This document shows positions 52,956 to 62,569 of a DNA stretch of 64,000 bases, one piece after another (the stretch's first letter is position 1; every line of letters starts with the position of its first letter). The stretch is from Eutypa lata (taxonomy: Eukaryota; Ascomycota; Sordariomycetes; Xylariales; Diatrypaceae). The notes below the pieces were generated by a model that saw only the letters and a program-made list of their open reading frames with translations, did not search any database and was not told the origin of the DNA. A program made the translations under genes and the position numbers. The stretch lies in contig JAKULF010000006.1 in assembly GCA_022661535.1 (NCBI GenBank), positions 3,219,001 through 3,283,000 of the forward strand. The letters are read 5' to 3'.

Positions 52956-54287
52956 TCATGCTCTTGCGAGACTCCGTCTAATGTAGGCTTCAACTTGCTC
53001 GAGCTCTTCATGATCTTGACCACCCCAGACAATGTCAGCCATATGCAGATCGCCTTCTATAGCTGCGGTAGCAGTGACTATAATCTTCCCAGTCTCAATC
53101 AGCGAGTTGAGAGTATCATATATGTCATCCGTCGCTCCGCGGTATTCGAATGCAGCAAACTGCGCCAGTGATAAGCCCCTTTCTTTCCAGAAGTGCCCGG
53201 ACATAAAGCAAATTGGCATCGAGCCGGTGAACCGAGCATTGAGATCCACGACGTATTGCCCTCCGTTCTTGTCCACGACAATGTCGATGCCGGCCCATCC
53301 AACGAAGGTCTCGGGTAGCTTTTGCGTGGTGTCGCGTACGGTCTCCCAGACAAGATCGTGCAGCTCAGCCTGCACACTGTAATCGATGTATCCACCAACC
53401 CACTTGCCGTCTTTCGTGAGCGTCTGCACTGTGATACCAAGGATGAGAGGGTTGCTGCGGTTGCGCTCGCTCGTGGGCGCGCCAATGAGGAAGTGAACAC
53501 TCAGATCCTGAACTAGGTCGATGTACTCTGAAATCAAGACCTCGTCGACACCCCTGGCTTTGTACTTCTCTAAGGCGCCTACTACGTCTCTGCGACGATC
53601 TTCATTTGTTACAATGAACGTTCCGAAACCACACCCTGCACGGCATAGCTTGACCACAAAAGGCAGCGGTCTTGCTGAGAAGACGGAGGAAGAATCCGCG
53701 ATGTTGGTGTCACGCAAGCTGATGATTTCCGACGTCGGAGTTCGTATCCCTGACGTAATCAGGTATTTCTTCGAGTTTATTATGTATGCCTCCTCGGGAT
53801 CATTTAGACAGTCGTGCTTCGTCATCCAGGCCTGTGGGCGCCAGAACAGCAATTTCTTGTTTTGTGCAATTTCAAGCAGCTTCTCAAAGACGGCCCCCTG
53901 GTCCAGATCAACAATCTGGGGCCGATGCCGCTGATCCGGGTCCAGTTGCGATAACGCGCGCTCCATCCCCTCCGCCGAGATGTTGGGACCGAAGAAGATC
54001 ACGTCTAGATCGCCGAGTCCGAAAGCCCTGCGAAGCGGTTTCAGTCCAAGGATGACTTTGCGAAGGCGATCCTGCTCGTCTTCGTCGTCAGAAAAGGGCA
54101 CGGGCTCCTCATCCTCGGGATAGACCGTCTCCCGGGGAAACGCTGGGTGAAGGTCCATGTGCGCGAAGACGCAATACATCGTGACGATGAAATCCCCAGA
54201 GATTCCGTTCTTGCGGTAAAGTTCCGCCAACGTCGTGTCCAGCCTCACACGCGGCGCCTTTGCGCCTTGTCTTTTCTGTATCGCCAT
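52956..54287 (-). CDS. Stand-alone ATP-grasp enzyme
   Basis: A single exon of 443 residues. The central region has the ATP-grasp layout: 'LPFVVKLCRAGCGFGTFIV' (first ATP-binding Lys and glycine-rich loop), 'VDEVLISEYIDL' (hinge) and 'AGIDIVVDKNGGQYVVDLNARFTGSMP' split around the metal-binding Asp, Glu/Asn and Arg residues of the catalytic end. The N-terminal 170 residues form the preATP-grasp part. Such enzymes ligate a carboxylate to an amine or thiol using ATP; in fungi, single-domain members are often found in secondary-metabolite loci. It is tail-to-tail with the GST gene (about 320 bp). The substrate is unknown. Confidence 0.85.
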   Translation of the reverse strand: MAIQKRQGAKAPRVRLDTTLAELYRKNGISGDFIVTMYCVFAHMDLHPAFPRETVYPEDEEPVPFSDDEDEQDRLRKVILGLKPLRRAFGLGDLDVIFFGPNISAEGMERALSQLDPDQRHRPQIVDLDQGAVFEKLLEIAQNKKLLFWRPQAWMTKHDCLNDPEEAYIINSKKYLITSGIRTPTSEIISLRDTNIADSSSVFSARPLPFVVKLCRAGCGFGTFIVTNEDRRRDVVGALEKYKARGVDEVLISEYIDLVQDLSVHFLIGAPTSERNRSNPLILGITVQTLTKDGKWVGGYIDYSVQAELHDLVWETVRDTTQKLPETFVGWAGIDIVVDKNGGQYVVDLNARFTGSMPICFMSGHFWKERGLSLAQFAAFEYRGATDDIYDTLNSLIETGKIIVTATAAIEGDLHMADIVWGGQDHEELEQVEAYIRRSLARA

Positions 54288-55866
54288 AGTCGTCTAGGTA
54301 ATCGAGTGTTTGACCTCCTTGTCGAGTTCGCGCTTGCGTCTATTGTCGGACCTCATGTTGCCTTTTCGTCCCTTTATTTTGGGGCTGTCTATGTAAATAT
54401 TAGTGTTCATCTTCGGATAACATGCGTGTGAGACCGACTAAGGAGTCCACAGGTACCTGTGCCACTGAGGCGCAGCTGAAAAGAGCGGTCTAGGTACAGT
54501 AAGAGTGTCGGCTTTGGGCCGACCGATGGATCACTCGGTAGGATTTCTTGTCCACTCCCAATAAGAATCCCAATAATAATATCTTTTCGGTGAAACCCAT
54601 ATTACTCACTTTTGCTACGCCTGTTGAGATTTCGGTTGCGTCGTAGGGCTGAGTCACATCACGCGGCCTCGGCCCGCTTCTCTGCATATTTCCCGGTCTG
54701 CAAATGGCACCCATTGATAAGATCGCAAAGACCTGCCTAACTAGGTGGCCTCGGTAGGTAGTGGTTACAGGATGCAACGCATTTTAAGACATTTAACTCT
54801 AGATGGGCTATATTGTGCGTAATTGGTGCGTTCGCCTACCACATATTTACTAAAGAATACTAAAATTAACCCCTATATATTTAGAGTTGATAGAAGGAAG
54901 AGGGTCTAATAGTTTAAAATAACAATATCATTCATACTAAATTCAACTATTATGTTTCTACTATCACAACAGTTGAGTTTCATATAACGAATTCGTCAAC
55001 CGTATAGCCAATTAATTATTGATTACTTTCGCTGAACCCCTTTTAAACAGAATTGAAATTGGTCCAAGGGAAATATATGGTGATGATAATAATAGCAGTG
55101 ATAACATGGTAAAGAAGGTAATATTTGTGTCATACTGCATCATTATTATACCTGCCATCATCGCCGGAAGGAGTAGAGTCTCATAGCTTAGTGACCAGGT
55201 AATGACTGTAGAGCATCTAATATTGCGTATAAAAGCCTCTGCAGGATGACGGCAGCGTATCACTTGCACCTGTGTAATAATTAACAGTGTCGATGAATCT
55301 TGATTTGCAAGGCTTTTTCTAGTCTGACTGCTCCCATTACTAACCTGCATTAGCATCCGCATTTATGAGTTGTGTCAAGTAGAAGCTATTATTGGTATCC
55401 TCATCGAGACATATCTTTATCCATATTTCGTGACTTTACTAGAAGACAAAGCCCCTATTCTCTAGTCTTCCCCCTTAAATATTAAACACACGGTGGCAAC
55501 ACTACTGTAGTTTTCCTACTTTTTACTTTTTTTTATTATTCGTATTATGCAAACACCTACCTGAACGTCTACAATAGCCAACTACACCGAGCTGGCGAAT
55601 CTCAATATACGTAGTTAAGTTGCGCTATTTCTTAATTACGGCCCTTCCGATGTGTAGTTTCATATAACCACGTATAGGTAGTTGGCTGGAGTACCAATAA
55701 ATACCCCGAATGAAATAGTGCAAAATATGGCTACAAAAATAAGTGTGGTTAAAGTAGCTGCATGAGCATATGATTGTGATACATGAATACTTCTAATATC
55801 TATGAGTTGTTATCAAGCCGGAAGGTAGTGTGGATGGAAAGCAGTTTGCATGCCGCTTGATCACAA
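54288..55866. other. Intergenic region
   Basis: Includes the ATP-grasp promoter. AT-rich from about 54830 to 55100 and around 55500. Frames here are short and unsupported. Confidence 0.4.
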
Positions 55867-57600
55867 TCATCTCCGCGGAAAAGGAGCAGCAGAGTTTCCA
55901 AACACCCCATTCTCGGTATTCTCTTCAGCAGGGAAGCACTCATCGACGTTAAATTCTGCAGAATCCGTCCCTTGCGTGATGTATTGACTTGTGTTTGACG
56001 TTGTTTGATTTGACGATACGTATGTTTCTATGATCCTTACAACAGAACCATTGAAGAACATAACGCGGCTAAGCTCGGCAACTGTTTCCGGAACACATTT
56101 AGCATCAGGGAGGTGGACCGTGAGGGTCGGGTCGGCCCCCTCCTCCAGGAACTGGTCGAGGGATTTACTCTAGTGGTCGCTTTTGACCCATTGTCATCGA
56201 CTGCTTCTTCAAATTGGCGGTGAAGCCATACCGAGAATAGACCTATGGCGTATTTAGTTCCCAAGGCTAAATGAGGCACGGTAGCGTCCTGTCGTATCAT
56301 AATACCGACACCAAGAACACGAGATTGGGGTCTGCGCCATATTTGAGGAAAAGAGCCAATAGGGAGGATATGATGCGCACCGAGATCACTGGATTCGATC
56401 GCGATAGGCAACTCTCTGTCCAAAAAACCAAACCTTCTACCGTTGCGTTGGGGTTAGTCCGTGTAAGAAGAAGGGCCTCGAATAGCCTGGGTTACTAGGA
56501 TGAGACGTAAGGGAGGCCGTCGTATCTGATAAGGAAGATGAAAACATCAGCAACATCCATATCGTCTTGCCTCTGGCACAGTCTTAATCGTGCTGATGTG
56601 GAACATTCTCAAGTTGGAGGCCAGCTTGGTTCAGCTGGTCTAAATCGCCTTTCTTGTCCATATTTGACGACGTGGTAAAGAACGGCGGCTGCCATCAATA
56701 ACGCGACGTATATAAGATCCAGTAACCCATTCCCGGTCAAATATCCAGGCGATTCCTCATATATCTTGTCTTCTATATATCAATTAACCAGGTTCGGAGA
56801 AGATTATCCCAGCCCCTGGTGAACACCAGAACATCTGTAAACCCCTATCCCTAGCTTTCATTCCATCCTTTGTCAAGTGAGGGATAGTTTCGATAATGGA
56901 TGGCTTATCGCCAGGGTTCTCTAGGGTGACAATAAAAAAGCTTATTAATTCAATGTGGTGACTGGCGTAGATCATCCAGAACCTCCGTCTTGGGGTTACC
57001 CGGCTCGGTCTCGGATAGTTTGGTGTATTAGATGAGGTCTAAGATTAGATCCTCTAAGTGAGACCCAAGAGGATCAAGGTTGAGGCCCTGATATGACCGT
57101 ATACACCTGATCATATGAAGAAAGCTAGTACAGATCTCAAAAAGGGCTTGATTGGTTCTAAGGATATACTAAGAGATCTTGATAAAGGTTATCTTACCGA
57201 GCGATGCATGAAATCAACCCGGAGCGTCCTGGGATAAACAGGCGCTTCTTTAGTGCGTGGGGTAGAACGGGGATTGTTAGCGGCTTTTTAACCATAAGAC
57301 ATACGGAAGATGCCCACTGCTTGCTCTTTCTGCTTTTTGTAGCAGGACTCGATTGTTTGCAGCATGTAGTTGAATAGATTCCCAAGGTTTCCCAGTGGAT
57401 CGTGTAGGCGTCTCCGTAATTCGGGATAGTATCCGCATTCATCATACCATTCAGAAGCGGCCGCAGATCAAGTGTGACTAAAGCCGTACGTCCTTTCACC
57501 ATTGAACAATTTGACCTCAAGAGATTTATGTCCTTCGTCAATCTTGCACGCCTCAAACTTCTCAAACACTCCTCAATCTCCTTTCTTCTCAGGAGCTCTA
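55867..57600 (-). pseudogene. Relic of an NLR-type (NACHT/ankyrin-like) gene
   Basis: Minus-strand fragments in different frames, broken by stops, retain recognisable pieces. At about 57180-57580 there is a segment with 'LGNLFNYMLQTIESCYKKQ' and then 'PRTLRVDFMHRSVR', like the 'VxFLHRTVxDFL' motif behind the NACHT domain of many fungal STAND proteins. At about 56060-56170 'QFLEEGADPTLTVHL' looks like an ankyrin/C-terminal repeat remnant, followed by 'MFFNGSVVRIIETYV' to a stop at 55867. No continuous reading is possible. It lies directly downstream of, and in the same orientation as, the NLR at 57735-60778. Identification rests on short motifs. Confidence 0.45.
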
Positions 57601-57734: not shown

Positions 57735-60700
57735 CTATATTATTCCGGACAAAGAACATATCCAAATGCGTCCAGATTTGCAGCCAACCGCAATGAACTG
57801 CGCGTTAACGGCTGAACAGGTAGCCTGATAATCACGAGGCAGATGGAGCAATCTACGGCCGTCACATATTATCCATTCTTCCTCAATCCTTACATTATGG
57901 TCGTTGTGAGGCTGCTGGTGGACCTTAGGTGGCGGTCTAGACCTAGACGAACTAGATACATATAGGGTCCCCCGACCGGTGGAAGGGTAGCTCATGTCGC
58001 GCAAGAAGCTTCCATATCGAGTGTTCCGATCAGTGAAAGAGTAGCCCCTGTTGCATGAGAAGCCTACATGTGGAGTGCCCCTATTAGTATAAAGGTAGCT
58101 CCCGTCGCTCGAGAAGGCTACATATGGAATACCCCTATCGGTGAAAGGGTAGCTCTCGTCGCGCGAGAAGTCTACGGAGCTAAACTCTGTGTTATAGCCC
58201 TCGGCTGTCTGCTGGATTGCACCCGTCGCCGCATCCCGCACCTGGACCGCGCCGTCCCCCGAACCTAACGCCAGTCCATGCTCGTCGGGTGAAAGAACCA
58301 TCGAGTTCGCTTTGATCGATCGTCCACTGGAGTGCTCCCTTAGCCGCGTACCGCACCAGGACCACGCCATATCGTGGCGATGCCAGCTGATGCCCCTCGG
58401 GTGAGAAGGCCAATGAAGTAATCCGGGTGTCGGTGCTCTCAACAATCCGTAGCGATGGCCCTCGAGCGTCCATTGGAGTGCACCGGTCGTCACATTCCAC
58501 ACCCGGACCGTGCCGTTCCGCCAACCCGACGCCAGTCGTTGCCCATCGGGTGAAAAAACTATCGAGTGTTTGCAGCCGTGGTTGTGGCCACTGTACATCC
58601 ACTGGAGTGCGCCTGTCGGCGCGTCCCGCATCTGGATCGCGCCGTCCTGCGAACCCGACGCCAGTCGTTGCCCGTCGGGTGAAAAGACCAACAATGTAAC
58701 CCCGGTACGGGGTTTAAGGATCGAGAAAATAGATCCTCCCCAAAACTTTTCGACAGCCGGCTTTAAGACAAGCCATGGTGGTTCCTCGTCCTGGAAGAGT
58801 TTTCGTATTATGGTTTCCGATGGGCTGAAAACGAGGGCCGACGTATACACCTGAAGCGGGCTGCTTGTAATTCCCGACATATTAAAGTCAATAAACCCGC
58901 CCGCACTCCGTATGAGGTCATGGAGGGGCTTGTCCTGTACCCGATAATATTAATATACTTCTTCAAAGAAAGTTAGAAACGGCGCTTACTTGGACCAATG
59001 ATCTCAGCTTTTCTATCGCGGAAGACCCGTCATATACTTCTTCAAGAATGCTGAGCGCCTCCAGCCAATGGAGGAAGTGTCGCCGTAAAAAATATAGCAA
59101 TGGGCCCGCCATCTCCAAAGTAGTCGCATTGCGTCCGCTCGTCAGGTTGACAGGCGATTAAATGATCAACCCAGTAGATACAGGAGTACCTCGCGGAAGC
59201 TAACGGGTCAGGGCTTGGTGGCTTAATATGGTGAGGATCTATCCCATAATCGTTTAGATGATATATATCTCGTCGTAAAGTTTTCGATAGGATATCGAGT
59301 GATTGTAGGAATATGCTGTCATGAGCAGTTCCGATTTTACCGGAAGATAGAACGTCATTTGCCGTTTCATCAAGAAAATCTTGGGCCGATTGATGAATAA
59401 TAAAAACGCGACCTTCCCGCACCGTAAGAAATGAACCACACAGTCTCACAATCTTTGCTACGGCCTTAGCTGTGTCGAAGGCGGGTTGGGGTAAACCAGA
59501 CAGAGCACCAAGCTCTTCCAAACAAAGTGGTCGGTATGTGGTCGTAACGACCAAAAGCATTTGTATGCAATATTTGGAATCTCTTCGCTGATGTTGAATC
59601 TGCCGCATCATGCGCCAGTATAACTCCTTTAACCCGGTTGGGACTTCGTCCATAATTTCTGCAATATGCCAGGTCTCGGCCGTTTTAAGTTCTTGAGCCA
59701 CTAGGCTTACCCAAAGGAATGTGCCATCTGACTTTTGTTGCATTTGTTGGCGAACTTGGGCTTGAAGCTGTGGATCGTCTTGTATGGCTGGTATCTCGGA
59801 GATATAATGATTAATATAAGCATTGACAGCATGAGAAACGTGAGCCGCGTTGATTTTCAGCTCCAGACTGAGCGTTGTCCGTGATTGATCGGATTGTATC
59901 TTTTGTTCGATGTCGGTTCTGTTCCGACTTGATACGAGCCACTTGACACGAGATCTAGGCGAGACCTCCATGATCAAGCTGAGAAGTAGCGGGAGATCGG
60001 ACTCGCATTCGTCGAGCGCGTCAATTATCAATATAGTATCCGGAAGGTTGGGATCTAGTAGCATTTGCATGAAGATTTCGCGTAACGCGAACCAGGTATT
60101 TGGCCCTTCGAACAGTGCTTTGCCGACGCCCTTGTGCTTCTGTTGGAGATGCGTGATAAGGGATGGTCGCTGGTCGATAAGAAGGTAAATCAGACCGCGT
60201 AATACCCCTATAGCATTGTTTAGTCGCCCGTCGGTAGCCTGGCAGAAAAAGAAGGCTATAAGGTGGGCAGTGTTGATAGCTTGCTCTTTCAACTCGTCGA
60301 TAATGCCACAGAGCAACATGGTCTTCCCTTTGCCCGGATCACCCTTGATCCAGAGCAGATGACTATCGGAATGGTTGCGCCATCGCTGGAATCCATCGTG
60401 GTCGAGGATCCAGCAGTACGAATCTCGTAGCAGGCCACCCTTTGTTTTTTCGATGCGATCCTTGTCGTGGCGGGGGTCGGTAGAGTACAAGTCGATAAGG
60501 CATTGTGCAGGTTTTTCGGAATGGTGTGATGCTTACCATTTATTTGTTACTATCTGAATCATTATGATGTAGGATAATGAATACTTACTAATGTTCAGGT
60601 CACCGTTAACTTGAAAAGAACCAGATCCTGAGTGTTGGATACCTTGCCCATCGAAGGACGATTGAACAGCAGGCGGGCTGGATCCGTGATGTGAATCGCT

Positions 60701-60778
60701 GAGACTATATGACGAAATTTCTTCAATCAAGTCGGGGACCTCTCGGTCATACTGTTGCTTCTCAGATCCGTCCGTCAT
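57735..60778 (-). pseudogene. NACHT-WD40 NLR (STAND) gene with N-terminal amyloid-like motif; frameshifted
   Basis: Three exons: 60589-60778, 58990-60531 and 57735-58934. Exon 1 encodes a 63-residue N-terminus ending in a Gly/Ser-rich motif (residues 42-63, core 'GIQHSGSGS'). Exon 2 carries the NACHT domain: 'KTKGGLLRDSYCWIL' lead-in, Walker A 'GDPGKGKT' (about 127-134) and Walker B 'ILIIDALDECE' (about 229-239), then a winged-helix region and 'VFIIHQSAQDFL'. Exon 3 holds WD40 repeats ('LLVFSPDGQRLASGSQDGAI') and four 18-residue tandem repeats. The class matches HET-E/HNWD-like receptors controlling heterokaryon incompatibility and cell death. Breaks: one frameshift in an A6 run (59087-59092) just before 'HFLHWLEALSIL', and two compensating shifts near 58446 and 58310 within the WD40 part. 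Decayed gene or assembly errors. Confidence 0.85.
57975..58190 (-). repeat. Four tandem 54-bp repeats in the NLR WD40 region
   Basis: Sequence like GTGAAAGGGTAGCTC recurs with exact 54-bp spacing near 57980, 58034, 58088 and 58142. Each copy encodes 18 residues of the type 'SYPFTDRGIPYVAFSSD'. The copies differ by several substitutions. The unit is about half a WD40 blade, unlike the usual unit of about 42 codons in this gene class. Confidence 0.85.
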
Positions 60779-61480
60779 AACATAAACATAGTATAGGAAA
60801 TCCGTCAGAAAACACAGTTAGAGCTAGGGAGCTGCTGTCGTTCAGCGTAGGAAAAGATTTTGGCGATGCTGAGACAAGTTCGCGGTGTGGACAGTGGGGA
60901 ACACGGCCCCCTCGGATTGGACAGAAATCGAAAGGAGACGTTGTAGTCGATCCCGCTACCCCTGTTATTGTCTGACAGGTGAGGCCAATTAGCAGCCGGC
61001 GCGGTGTATTCTTTATCAGTCTGCATAACGCAAACTAAAACCCCGTTGATCAGGAGCTATTAGGTTCGGCCCGCTGCGTATAGATCCAGTACCCTTCAAA
61101 ACACTGTATGGGAGTCATTATTTGCCCATCGTCATACTGAAGGGAAAATCTACACCGAAATATTCATAATATGGAATATCAAGGACTTGCCGTGGAAGCA
61201 GAAGATAGTGTGCTGAGAGAGCGGCGACGTTGTAGCCTATAATTATTTTCTTGGCCCCAAGCTATTCAACCTCACCATGCAAGAACAAGCAAATCAGCAG
61301 AATTAACCCCGCAGTTTCTCTACTGCTACTTGTTACCCCCCTTCTTGTGATGCATAAGCAGAGCCTTACATTAGTTCCATGGAGTTCCTAGTCTAAATAG
61401 ATTCCTAAGTCCTATCCTAGAATCCATAGTTTAATGAGCTATTATAATTATTCTTAGTTAAAAGGGGTAAAACGAACATA
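60779..61480. promoter_or_regulatory. Divergent promoter region between NLR and phosphorylase-like gene
   Basis: 702 bp separate the two ATGs. A 73-codon frame on the minus strand (60805-61026) has no features. The head-to-head arrangement suggests co-expression of the pair. No specific sites were identified. Confidence 0.45.
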
Positions 61481-62569
61481 ATGTCAGGTGTACAGAACAA
61501 CGCAATATCCTATAAGGATTATACCGTTGCCGTGGTTTGCGCCATGAGCTTCGAGATGAGCGCGGTCCGTTATATGCTAGACCAAGAGCATCCGCAGCTA
61601 CAGAGCCAGCAGGGAGATCCGAACATCTACGTCCTCGGCCTGCTTAGCGGACATAACGTCGTGCTCGCATGCCTCCCCGGAAACCAAGGTAAAGGCTCCG
61701 CCGCTACCGTGGCCACGAACTTGGCGCGAACGTTCCCTTCCATCCAATGGCGATTTCTCGTGGGTATTGGAGGAGGGGTTCCAACCAAACACGACGTCCG
61801 CTTAGGTGATGTGGTTGTGAGCATGCCTGACGGACAATACGGCGGGGTTGTTCAATACGACCTGGGGAAGGATACTACCGATGGCTTCATCCCCAAAGGC
61901 TTCTTGTGGCCGCCGCCGCCTCTCGTGAGGAGCGCCGTCGAGAGAATGCGGTCGGACCACCTAGTCAGCGAGAACAAGGTCGATGAGTTTCTGTCGGCCA
62001 TGCTGCAAAAGGGGAGGCGACTGGCGGCGCTTTACCGAAGACCATTGACTGAATTTGATGTTTTATTCAAATCAGACTATCCGCACGGTCATGACAACCC
62101 CACATGTAAGAGCTGTGACAAGTCGAAAATTGTCAAAAGGCCACTTCGCGAGTCCGAAGCATCCGAGATACACTACGGATTGATTGCCTCGGGAGATCGG
62201 GTCATCAAGAGCGCTGCTAAAAGGGACATCACTGTGGGAAACATTGGCGACATCCTCTGTTTTGAGATGGAGGCTGCTGGTTTGATGACGGAATTCTCTA
62301 GTATTGTGATCCGCGGCATCTCCGACTATGCGGACTCTCACAAGAACGACGGCTGGCATCATTATGCGGCTGCAGCGGCCGCCGCGTGTAACAAGGAGCT
62401 ACTGTCTTACTTGGACCCGGATATCGGTTCCACTGCACCGGCGGCATCCGCAGGAAATCAACCGGGCGGGAACAGCCATCCAAGTTTCCACTCTGTTTTC
62501 ACAGGCCGAGGCATCCAGCACTCGGGTCCTGGGAGTTTGTCGGTCGGAGGAAATATGAACATCCGTTAA
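61481..62569 (+). CDS. PNP/UDP-phosphorylase-like protein with C-terminal amyloid-like motif (NLR partner)
   Basis: A single exon of 362 residues. Residues 14-310 form a nucleoside phosphorylase (PNP_UDP_1) domain: 'YTVAVVCAMSFEMSAVRYML', the phosphate/nucleoside loop 'LVGIGGGVP' (93-101), 'LGDVVVS', 'DILCFEMEAAGL' (catalytic Glu-Met-Glu, about 258-268) and 'IRGISDYADSHK' with the conserved Asp. In fungi this domain is common as the N-terminal effector of NLRs, where it may cleave nucleosides or nucleotides. After a Gly/Ser/Pro linker (315-335) the protein ends, at its stop codon, with a 22-residue motif (core 'GIQHSGPGS', 340-361). It shares 14 of 22 positions with the N-terminal motif of the divergently transcribed NLR. 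This points to a separate effector activated by NLR-templated amyloid assembly. Confidence 0.88.
   Translation: MSGVQNNAISYKDYTVAVVCAMSFEMSAVRYMLDQEHPQLQSQQGDPNIYVLGLLSGHNVVLACLPGNQGKGSAATVATNLARTFPSIQWRFLVGIGGGVPTKHDVRLGDVVVSMPDGQYGGVVQYDLGKDTTDGFIPKGFLWPPPPLVRSAVERMRSDHLVSENKVDEFLSAMLQKGRRLAALYRRPLTEFDVLFKSDYPHGHDNPTCKSCDKSKIVKRPLRESEASEIHYGLIASGDRVIKSAAKRDITVGNIGDILCFEMEAAGLMTEFSSIVIRGISDYADSHKNDGWHHYAAAAAAACNKELLSYLDPDIGSTAPAASAGNQPGGNSHPSFHSVFTGRGIQHSGPGSLSVGGNMNIR

What the first reader, a model, noticed from the sequence alone, without database searches (positions are those of the whole stretch)
60590..62569. NLR and divergent phosphorylase-like neighbour share a 22-residue amyloid-like motif
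The N-terminus of the NACHT-WD40 protein (residues 42-63, encoded at 60590-60655, right up to the first intron) and the C-terminus of the PNP/UDP-phosphorylase-like protein (62498-62566, right up to its stop) share the pattern FxGxGIQHSGxGSxxVxGxxNI, 14 of 22 positions identical. Known fungal amyloid-signalling pairs (for example HET-S/NWD2, and the sigma and PP motif systems) have exactly this arrangement: a motif at the NLR N-terminus and a matching motif at the C-terminus of an effector encoded next door. Here the effector would be a nucleoside/nucleotide phosphorylase or hydrolase. Whether the motif belongs to a known class or is new cannot be told by eye.
Basis: partly seen in the sequence, partly recalled or inferred. 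Interest (0 to 1): 0.88.

Follow-up and report, generated by a model that had tools for sequence, protein, structure and literature searches.

The report
Known fungal amyloid immune-signalling gene pair
Two neighbouring fungal genes, an immune-type receptor and a nucleoside-cleaving type of enzyme, share a short motif that very likely lets the receptor switch on the enzyme by seeding an amyloid; this kind of pair, called PUASM, was already described in 2022.

Summary
Residues 42-63 of the NACHT-WD40 protein (60590-60655, minus) and the C-terminus of the neighbouring PNP_UDP protein (62498-62566, plus) match at 14 of 22 positions. In the 54.5-Mb genome each motif finds only itself and its neighbour's copy. 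The effector is 99% identical to a Eutypa lata UCREL1 protein.

[quoted passage not shown] 2022 (PMC9815663), reported in NACHT and NACHT-WD40 N-termini and in C-termini of neighbouring PNP_UDP proteins, with in vitro amyloid and in vivo prion tests of a Colletotrichum example.

New here: a pair in Eutypa. The receptor motif fits exactly; the effector has Leu at the last core position. The motif is a conserved island behind a variable linker, predicted catalytic residues are kept, and seven of seven other PNP_UDP paralogue loci read lie beside or fused to a NACHT-type domain. The receptor carries a frame change near 59.1 kb that a near-identical protein lacks. Amyloid formation, templating and the substrate are inferred for this pair. 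New member of a known kind.

The parts
60589..60778 (-). NLR exon 1 (63 codons + 1 base): start codon, 41-residue leader, then the motif
   Evidence: ATG at 60778; GT donor at 60588; GT-AG intron 60532-60588 (57 nt) joins in frame to the NACHT exon; aligned to Monosporascus P0122 from residue 1
60590..60655 (-). Receptor-side PUASM-type motif, residues 42-63
   Evidence: translation; strict fit to FxGxGxQxxGxGxF; pattern from PMC9815663
58990..60531 (-). NLR exon 2: NPHP3_N/NACHT NTPase. In this assembly the frame closes at 59042 after a frame change near 59.09-59.12 kb
   Evidence: NPHP3_N E 1.7e-37, NACHT E 5.9e-16; switch from frame -2 to -3 against five relatives; near-identical protein P0242 runs through in one frame; exon end from the GT-AG intron 58935-58989 (55 nt), inferred from sequence without RNA
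57735..58934 (-). NLR exon 3: WD40 repeats, with one repeat region (about 58.33-58.45 kb) reading better in another frame
   Evidence: WD40 families; open to the stop; frames compared by eye; tblastn frame -1 alignments of relatives
60779..61480 (.). 702-bp divergent intergenic region between the two start codons
   Evidence: sequence
61481..62569 (+). Effector gene: 362-aa PNP_UDP_1 protein, single open frame with no intron seen
   Evidence: translation P0001; PNP_UDP_1 E 3.9e-10; 99% identical over 100% to Eutypa lata UCREL1 'putative pfs domain protein'
62498..62566 (+). Effector-side PUASM-type motif, residues 340-362, ending at the stop codon
   Evidence: translation; pattern fit with Leu at the last core position

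Best explanation
The two divergent genes are a receptor/effector pair using the known PUASM amyloid motif. Shown here by sequence: a NACHT-WD40 NLR with the motif at its N-terminus, and a PNP_UDP enzyme, with the conserved residues of nucleosidases, carrying the same motif at its C-terminus behind a variable linker. Inferred from the published class: the WD40 part senses a ligand, the NACHT domain oligomerises, the clustered N-terminal motifs fold into a beta-arch amyloid nucleus, and this templates the C-terminal motifs of the enzyme into the same fibre. Inferred more weakly: crowding switches on an N-glycosidic hydrolase that cuts a purine nucleotide, most likely ATP, and the cell compartment dies or arrests, as in defence or heterokaryon incompatibility.
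For: Motif fit and uniqueness in the genome. Same motif, effector domain and receptor architecture published as PUASM with 33 NLRs, 11 of them with motif-bearing neighbours, and ThT/AFM/FTIR amyloid and prion behaviour of a Colletotrichum example (PMC9815663). The window motifs match the published tested effector peptide at 13 (effector) and 14 (NLR) of 24 positions; P0016, 67% identical to the window effector, ends in a tail that matches that peptide at 22 of 24 positions and the same residue numbers. In 37 hand-picked effectors mean column conservation is 0.77 in the domain, 0.26 in the linker and 0.65 in the motif. In all 121 listed effectors (query included) 38 fit the strict pattern and 60 the pattern with a hydrophobic last residue. 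E25, E262, E264 and D282 are kept in 36, 37, 37 and 36 of those 37 and lie in stretches that align to MTA/SAH nucleosidases. Seven of seven other PNP_UDP paralogue loci read carry a NACHT-type domain fused or in the next long frame on the same strand. Two of 15 motif-bearing NLRs share species and contig length with a motif-bearing effector (P0238/P0013, P0155/P0030). The effector hits PADLOC's 'PN-superfamily' effector model, E 2.6e-12.
Against: No amyloid, binding or enzyme data for these two proteins. The effector motif has Leu where the published pattern has Phe, and the triplets after the core (effector GGN, NLR NGD) differ from the prevailing GND and ARD. 17 of the 64 effector motifs compared match the window NLR motif better than its own partner does, so no private pairing shows here; in two Colletotrichum pairs on a shared contig only 1 and 2 of 64 did better than the partner. 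The NLR frame is broken in this assembly. 105 of 120 listed NLR hits lack the motif by the patterns used; 6 of these 105 show a shortened or altered form. The substrate is unknown; the curated families matched are MTA/SAH and futalosine nucleosidases, all below their cut-offs.
Confidence: 0.85

Rival explanations
1. The pair is of the PUASM class but not working in this strain: the NLR is a decaying pseudogene and the effector is an orphan.
For: Frame change near 59.1 kb against five relatives; a WD40 repeat region reading better in another frame (by eye).
Against: P0242, reported as 100% identical (rounded) over 74% of the query with 24 member sequences, reads through that point. Its source is unnamed, so 'same species' is inferred from the identity; an assembly indel or a strain allele are both possible. 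The effector is intact and 99% identical to strain UCREL1.
Confidence: 0.3
2. The motif templates the effector, but the enzyme is a methylthioadenosine/adenosylhomocysteine-type nucleosidase acting on metabolites, not an ATP nucleosidase.
For: All ten solved sequences matched are annotated as adenosylhomocysteine or MTA/SAH nucleosidases and the best NCBIfam model is MTA/SAH nucleosidase; Dyrka et al. 2014 predicted this for Podospora PNP_UDP NLRs (PMC4986451, passages).
Against: PNP_UDP effectors are described as ATP-cutting in immunity in two reviews (PMC10197012, PMC12881547; passages), and the PADLOC PN-superfamily effector model matches.
Confidence: 0.35
3. The shared stretch is a glycine-rich adhesive tail that brings the proteins together without an amyloid fold.
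For: Rich in Gly and Ser; the structure model shows the tail as two strands at low confidence only (block pLDDT 38-44).
Against: Peptides of the same class from Colletotrichum formed ThT-positive fibrils, and a GFP fusion behaved as a prion in Podospora (PMC9815663).
Confidence: 0.08

Closest known systems
[quoted passage not shown] 2022 (PMC9815663)
   Same: Core pattern, N-terminal in NACHT/NACHT-WD40 receptors, C-terminal in PNP_UDP effectors, gene adjacency, Pezizomycotina
   Different: Leu for Phe at the last core position of the effector copy; GGN/NGD instead of the prevailing GND/ARD; Eutypa and Xylariales are not named in the main text; supplementary lists could not be read
HET-S/NWD2 and HRAM motifs
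   Same: Receptor/effector gene arrangement and the inferred templating mechanism (PMC5485727, first of four parts read)
   Different: Effector is an enzyme, not a HeLo pore former; no Pfam HET-s model matched either protein
PP (RHIM-like) and sigma motifs
   Same: Short motifs at the NLR N-terminus and the effector C-terminus
   Different: PP core NxGxQxGxN is absent; no Pfam PP or sigma model matched
PNP_UDP-NACHT fused NLRs, including paralogues in the same genome
   Same: Same effector fold with a NACHT-type NTPase
   Different: Effector and receptor in one frame or in adjoining frames of one strand; no further PUASM copy found in the genome
PNP ATP nucleosidase effectors (Rousset et al. 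2023; not read, seen only as cited in PMC12881547; the bacterial activity as stated in PMC10197012)
   Same: PNP-superfamily immune effector
   Different: Distant sequence; triggered by other systems (recalled); substrate of the fungal enzyme untested

Membership tests
PUASM | Core pattern FxGxGxQxxGxGxF | tested here: met
   NLR copy: exact. Effector copy: all fixed positions except the last F, which is L, a hydrophobic exchange; 38 strict and 60 relaxed of 121 listed effectors
PUASM | Motif at the C-terminus of a PNP_UDP protein | tested here: met
   PF01048 E 3.9e-10; motif residues 340-362 of 362
PUASM | Motif in the N-terminus of a NACHT or NACHT-WD40 NLR (relative majority at positions 20-49) | tested here: met
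   Residues 42-63; NPHP3_N/NACHT and WD40 matches; positions
PUASM | Receptor and effector encoded within 20 kb | tested here: met
   702 bp between the start codons, divergent
PUASM | Host in Pezizomycotina | tested here: met
   Effector 99% identical to Eutypa lata UCREL1; lineage. The genome itself is unnamed
PUASM | Match to the authors' profile HMM | not testable with these tools
PUASM | Prevailing, not defining: GND (effector) and ARD (NLR) after the core | tested here: not met
   GGN and NGD by reading the sequence; described as prevailing only
PUASM | Amyloid and prion behaviour | not testable with these tools
   Shown for a Colletotrichum example only
HET-s/HRAM, PP, sigma | Match to the Pfam motif models (HET-s PF11558, PP PF17046, sigma PF17106; names) | tested here: not met
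   Exon-1 frame (81 aa): 0 families at E up to 1; effector: PNP_UDP_1 only. HMMER's filters drop weak matches, so this is a weak negative for motifs this short
PP | Core NxGxQxGxN | tested here: not met
   Not in either motif; pattern
ATP nucleosidase effectors | Cleavage of ATP | not testable with these tools
   Only fold family, conserved residues and the PADLOC PN-superfamily hit

The most novel reading that the evidence does not exclude
The effector is an ATP-cutting nucleosidase held inactive as a free protein and turned on only when its C-terminal motif is pulled into an amyloid fibre seeded by the receptor. That would make it an amyloid-gated energy-depletion death switch, distinct from the pore-forming effectors of the HET-S type.
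Probability: 0.4. Interest if true: 0.6.

Novelty: new member of a known kind. Interest (0 to 1): 0.25.

Why it matters
It is a blind re-finding of a published motif class and extends it to Eutypa lata (Xylariales); neither Eutypa nor Xylariales is named in the paper's main text (supplements unread). A genome with one receptor copy and one effector copy, as found in this search, is a clean place to test whether amyloid templating switches on an enzyme, which the parts of the published work that I read do not show.

Tried and rejected
A new motif class: rejected, the pattern is PUASM. HET-s, PP or sigma membership: not supported, no Pfam match. Recent DNA duplication or gene conversion between the two genes: rejected, 4 of 14 identical residues share a codon. 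Private pair specificity: not supported for the window pair (17 of 64 effector motifs match its NLR motif better than the partner; the 64 include the partner itself and the UCREL1 copy); in P0238/P0013 and P0155/P0030 1 and 2 of 64 did better. Possible decayed gene pieces at 55.8-57.6 kb: five frames scanned, no Pfam family. Structure: the model without an alignment was useless (mean pLDDT 35.5); the one with 37 close homologues was moderate (54.5, pTM 0.51). A Foldseek search with it listed MTA/SAH nucleosidases, futalosine hydrolases and nucleoside phosphorylases at low TM-scores (0.18-0.37 by query length in the 50 rows shown), so it adds little beyond Pfam. Whole-neighbourhood conservation in other fungi could not be tested; only contig lengths in the protein lists were compared, which is weak (one shared contig is 1.59 Mb). 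A paper search on Eutypa lata with NLR terms listed ten papers, none with 'Eutypa lata' in its text (the ten listed only).
Full report
Observation. The two genes are divergent. The NLR starts at 60778 (minus), and its first exon ends at 60589, one base past the motif. A 57-nt GT-AG intron (60532-60588) joins it in frame to the NACHT exon, and a 55-nt GT-AG intron (58935-58989) leads to the WD40 exon (both from sequence, no RNA seen). The effector runs 61481-62569 (plus) as one open frame of 362 residues. The motif stretches are at the stated coordinates and agree at 14 of 22 positions. Against 20,000 shuffled pairs the local score of 102 was never reached (best 64). In the 54.5-Mb genome each motif, used as a protein query, returned two places only: itself and its neighbour (E 0.0016 and 2e-4). 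Even the full effector finds the NLR exon (E 3e-4). The search scores its best candidates only, so the copy number of one each is a lower bound. Of 14 identical residues 4 share a codon, so the likeness is not a recent DNA copy.

Organism. The effector is 99% identical over its full length to a 'putative pfs domain protein' of Eutypa lata UCREL1. Eutypa is in Diatrypaceae, Xylariales, Pezizomycotina. The genome record itself is unnamed.

Identity of the motif. Wojciechowski et al. 2022 (PMC9815663; outline, found passages, and the sections on short N-termini, on effector C-termini and on experimental validation read) describe PUASM: pattern FxGxGxQxxGxGxF, associated only with PNP_UDP, receptors annotated NACHT or NACHT-WD40, relative majority of NLR positions 20-49, all matched instances in Pezizomycotina, 33 NLRs and 11 with motif-bearing neighbours within 20 kb. 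Peptides of a Colletotrichum gloeosporioides pair gave amyloid spectra, fibrils and ThT signal, and a GFP fusion of the effector-side motif behaved as a prion in Podospora (fusions with the fluorescent protein on the other side did not). The window NLR copy fits the pattern exactly; the effector copy has Leu at the last core position. Window motifs match the published tested effector peptide at 13 (effector) and 14 (NLR) of 24 positions. The prevailing GND and ARD triplets are not present (GGN, NGD). The authors' profiles and pair lists are in supplements that could not be read, so whether the UCREL1 pair is already listed there is unknown; the main text does not name Eutypa or Xylariales. A 2025 method paper speaks of PUASM 1-2 (PMC12261475, passages). 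A library search for PUASM gave 11 papers; by title two of them concern amyloid motifs.

Conservation. Among 121 effector proteins (120 listed hits plus the query, nothing dropped; the search had 6561 hits) 38 have the strict pattern and 60 the pattern with a hydrophobic last residue; 64 fit a looser one. 57 fit none; by reading, these include truncated or fused proteins and shortened motifs. In a hand-picked set of 37 of those 121 the domain (0.77) and motif (0.65) are conserved and the linker between them (0.26) is not; this set favours full-length proteins, so the motif value leans high. Among 120 listed NLR hits 15 carry the motif in the first 200 residues by three patterns (8 strict, 2 hydrophobic, 5 loose) and 105 do not. 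Six of the 105 show a shortened or altered form at the N-terminus; many of the rest list a HET domain (PF06985). In Monosporascus P0122, also Xylariales, the motif is identical at 16 of 22 and the leader at 26 of 41 aligned positions. Two of the 15 motif-bearing NLRs share species and contig length with a motif-bearing effector (168,796 and 1,588,585 bases); the others do not or cannot be judged from the lists, so adjacency is at most partly shown to be conserved.

Partner specificity. The window NLR motif is matched better by 17 of 64 effector motifs than by its neighbour's. For the two Colletotrichum pairs on shared contigs the numbers are 1 and 2 of 64; this could be mere kinship of the species.

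Effector. PNP_UDP_1 (E 3.9e-10). The ten solved sequences matched are adenosylhomocysteine or MTA/SAH nucleosidases (best E 4.6e-6). E25, E262, E264 and D282, which I take for the catalytic residues of that family (roles recalled), are kept in 36, 37, 37 and 36 of 37. PADLOC's PN-superfamily effector model matches (E 2.6e-12). Two reviews describe PNP_UDP effectors as ATP-cutting in immunity (PMC10197012, PMC12881547; passages); the primary paper was not read. In Aspergillus fumigatus two incompatibility genes, hetA and hetD, encode PNP_UDP proteins; its authors see hetD acting without a neighbouring partner (PMC11138114, passages).

Fused relatives. The effector query gives 12 rows in this genome. 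Seven other loci (L014-L020) were read; in all seven a NACHT-type NTPase (NPHP3_N) is in the same frame or in the next long frame downstream on the same strand. In L019 the PNP part was found by the protein query only, not by Pfam at E 1e-5. PNP_UDP places on C10 and at C11:1.134 Mb were not examined. Database proteins with both domains also exist (P0072, P0166, P0173, P0241). So a fused receptor is common, and the window shows a split form in which the motif would take over the link.

Integrity of the receptor. Five relatives align in one frame up to about 59.09-59.13 kb and go on in another; the exon-2 frame closes at 59042. P0242, reported as 100% identical (rounded) over 74% of the query with 24 member sequences from an unnamed source, reads through that point, so the break is an assembly indel or an allele of this strain. 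One WD40 region near 58.33-58.45 kb also reads better in another frame (by eye).

Mechanism. Shown by sequence: the pairing, the motif, the domains and the conserved residues. Inferred from the published class: amyloid templating from receptor to effector. Inferred and uncertain: that crowding activates the enzyme and that ATP is the substrate. The AlphaFold model gives two strands in the motif (340-347, 353-361), as a beta-arch would, but at block pLDDT 38-44 this is no evidence.

Verdict. A new member of a known kind.

Noticed in passing
window 59087-59118 and about 58330-58450, minus strand: Frame changes in the NLR gene of this assembly; a near-identical database protein lacks the first one.
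   Followed up: partly
L014-L020 (G000 contigs C1, C5, C1, C4, C13, C11, C2): Seven PNP_UDP paralogues beside or fused to NACHT-type domains; the match in L017 holds one TGA, and a nearby piece upstream of L020's match (C2:4125587-4125841) one TAA, which may be introns or decay.
   Followed up: partly
window 54500-57600: AT-richer stretch (G+C about 40-47%) with only short frames (up to 138 aa in the list); five minus-strand frames match no Pfam family.
   Followed up: partly
window 52956-54293, minus strand: A 445-codon open frame with an ATP-grasp domain (ATP-grasp_3, E 4.7e-9).
   Followed up: no
window 60532-60588: The intron begins one base after the motif, so leader and motif form one exon; whether relatives share this intron is unknown. 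It could allow the motif cassette to move by exon shuffling.
   Followed up: no
P0127, P0128, P0134, P0135, P0137, P0138 (NLRs); P0025, P0046, P0051, P0075 (effectors): Shortened or altered motif variants recur on both sides in Colletotrichum, Annulohypoxylon, Apiospora, Fusarium and Pyricularia; they could be a sub-class, perhaps the second PUASM type named in PMC12261475.
   Followed up: no
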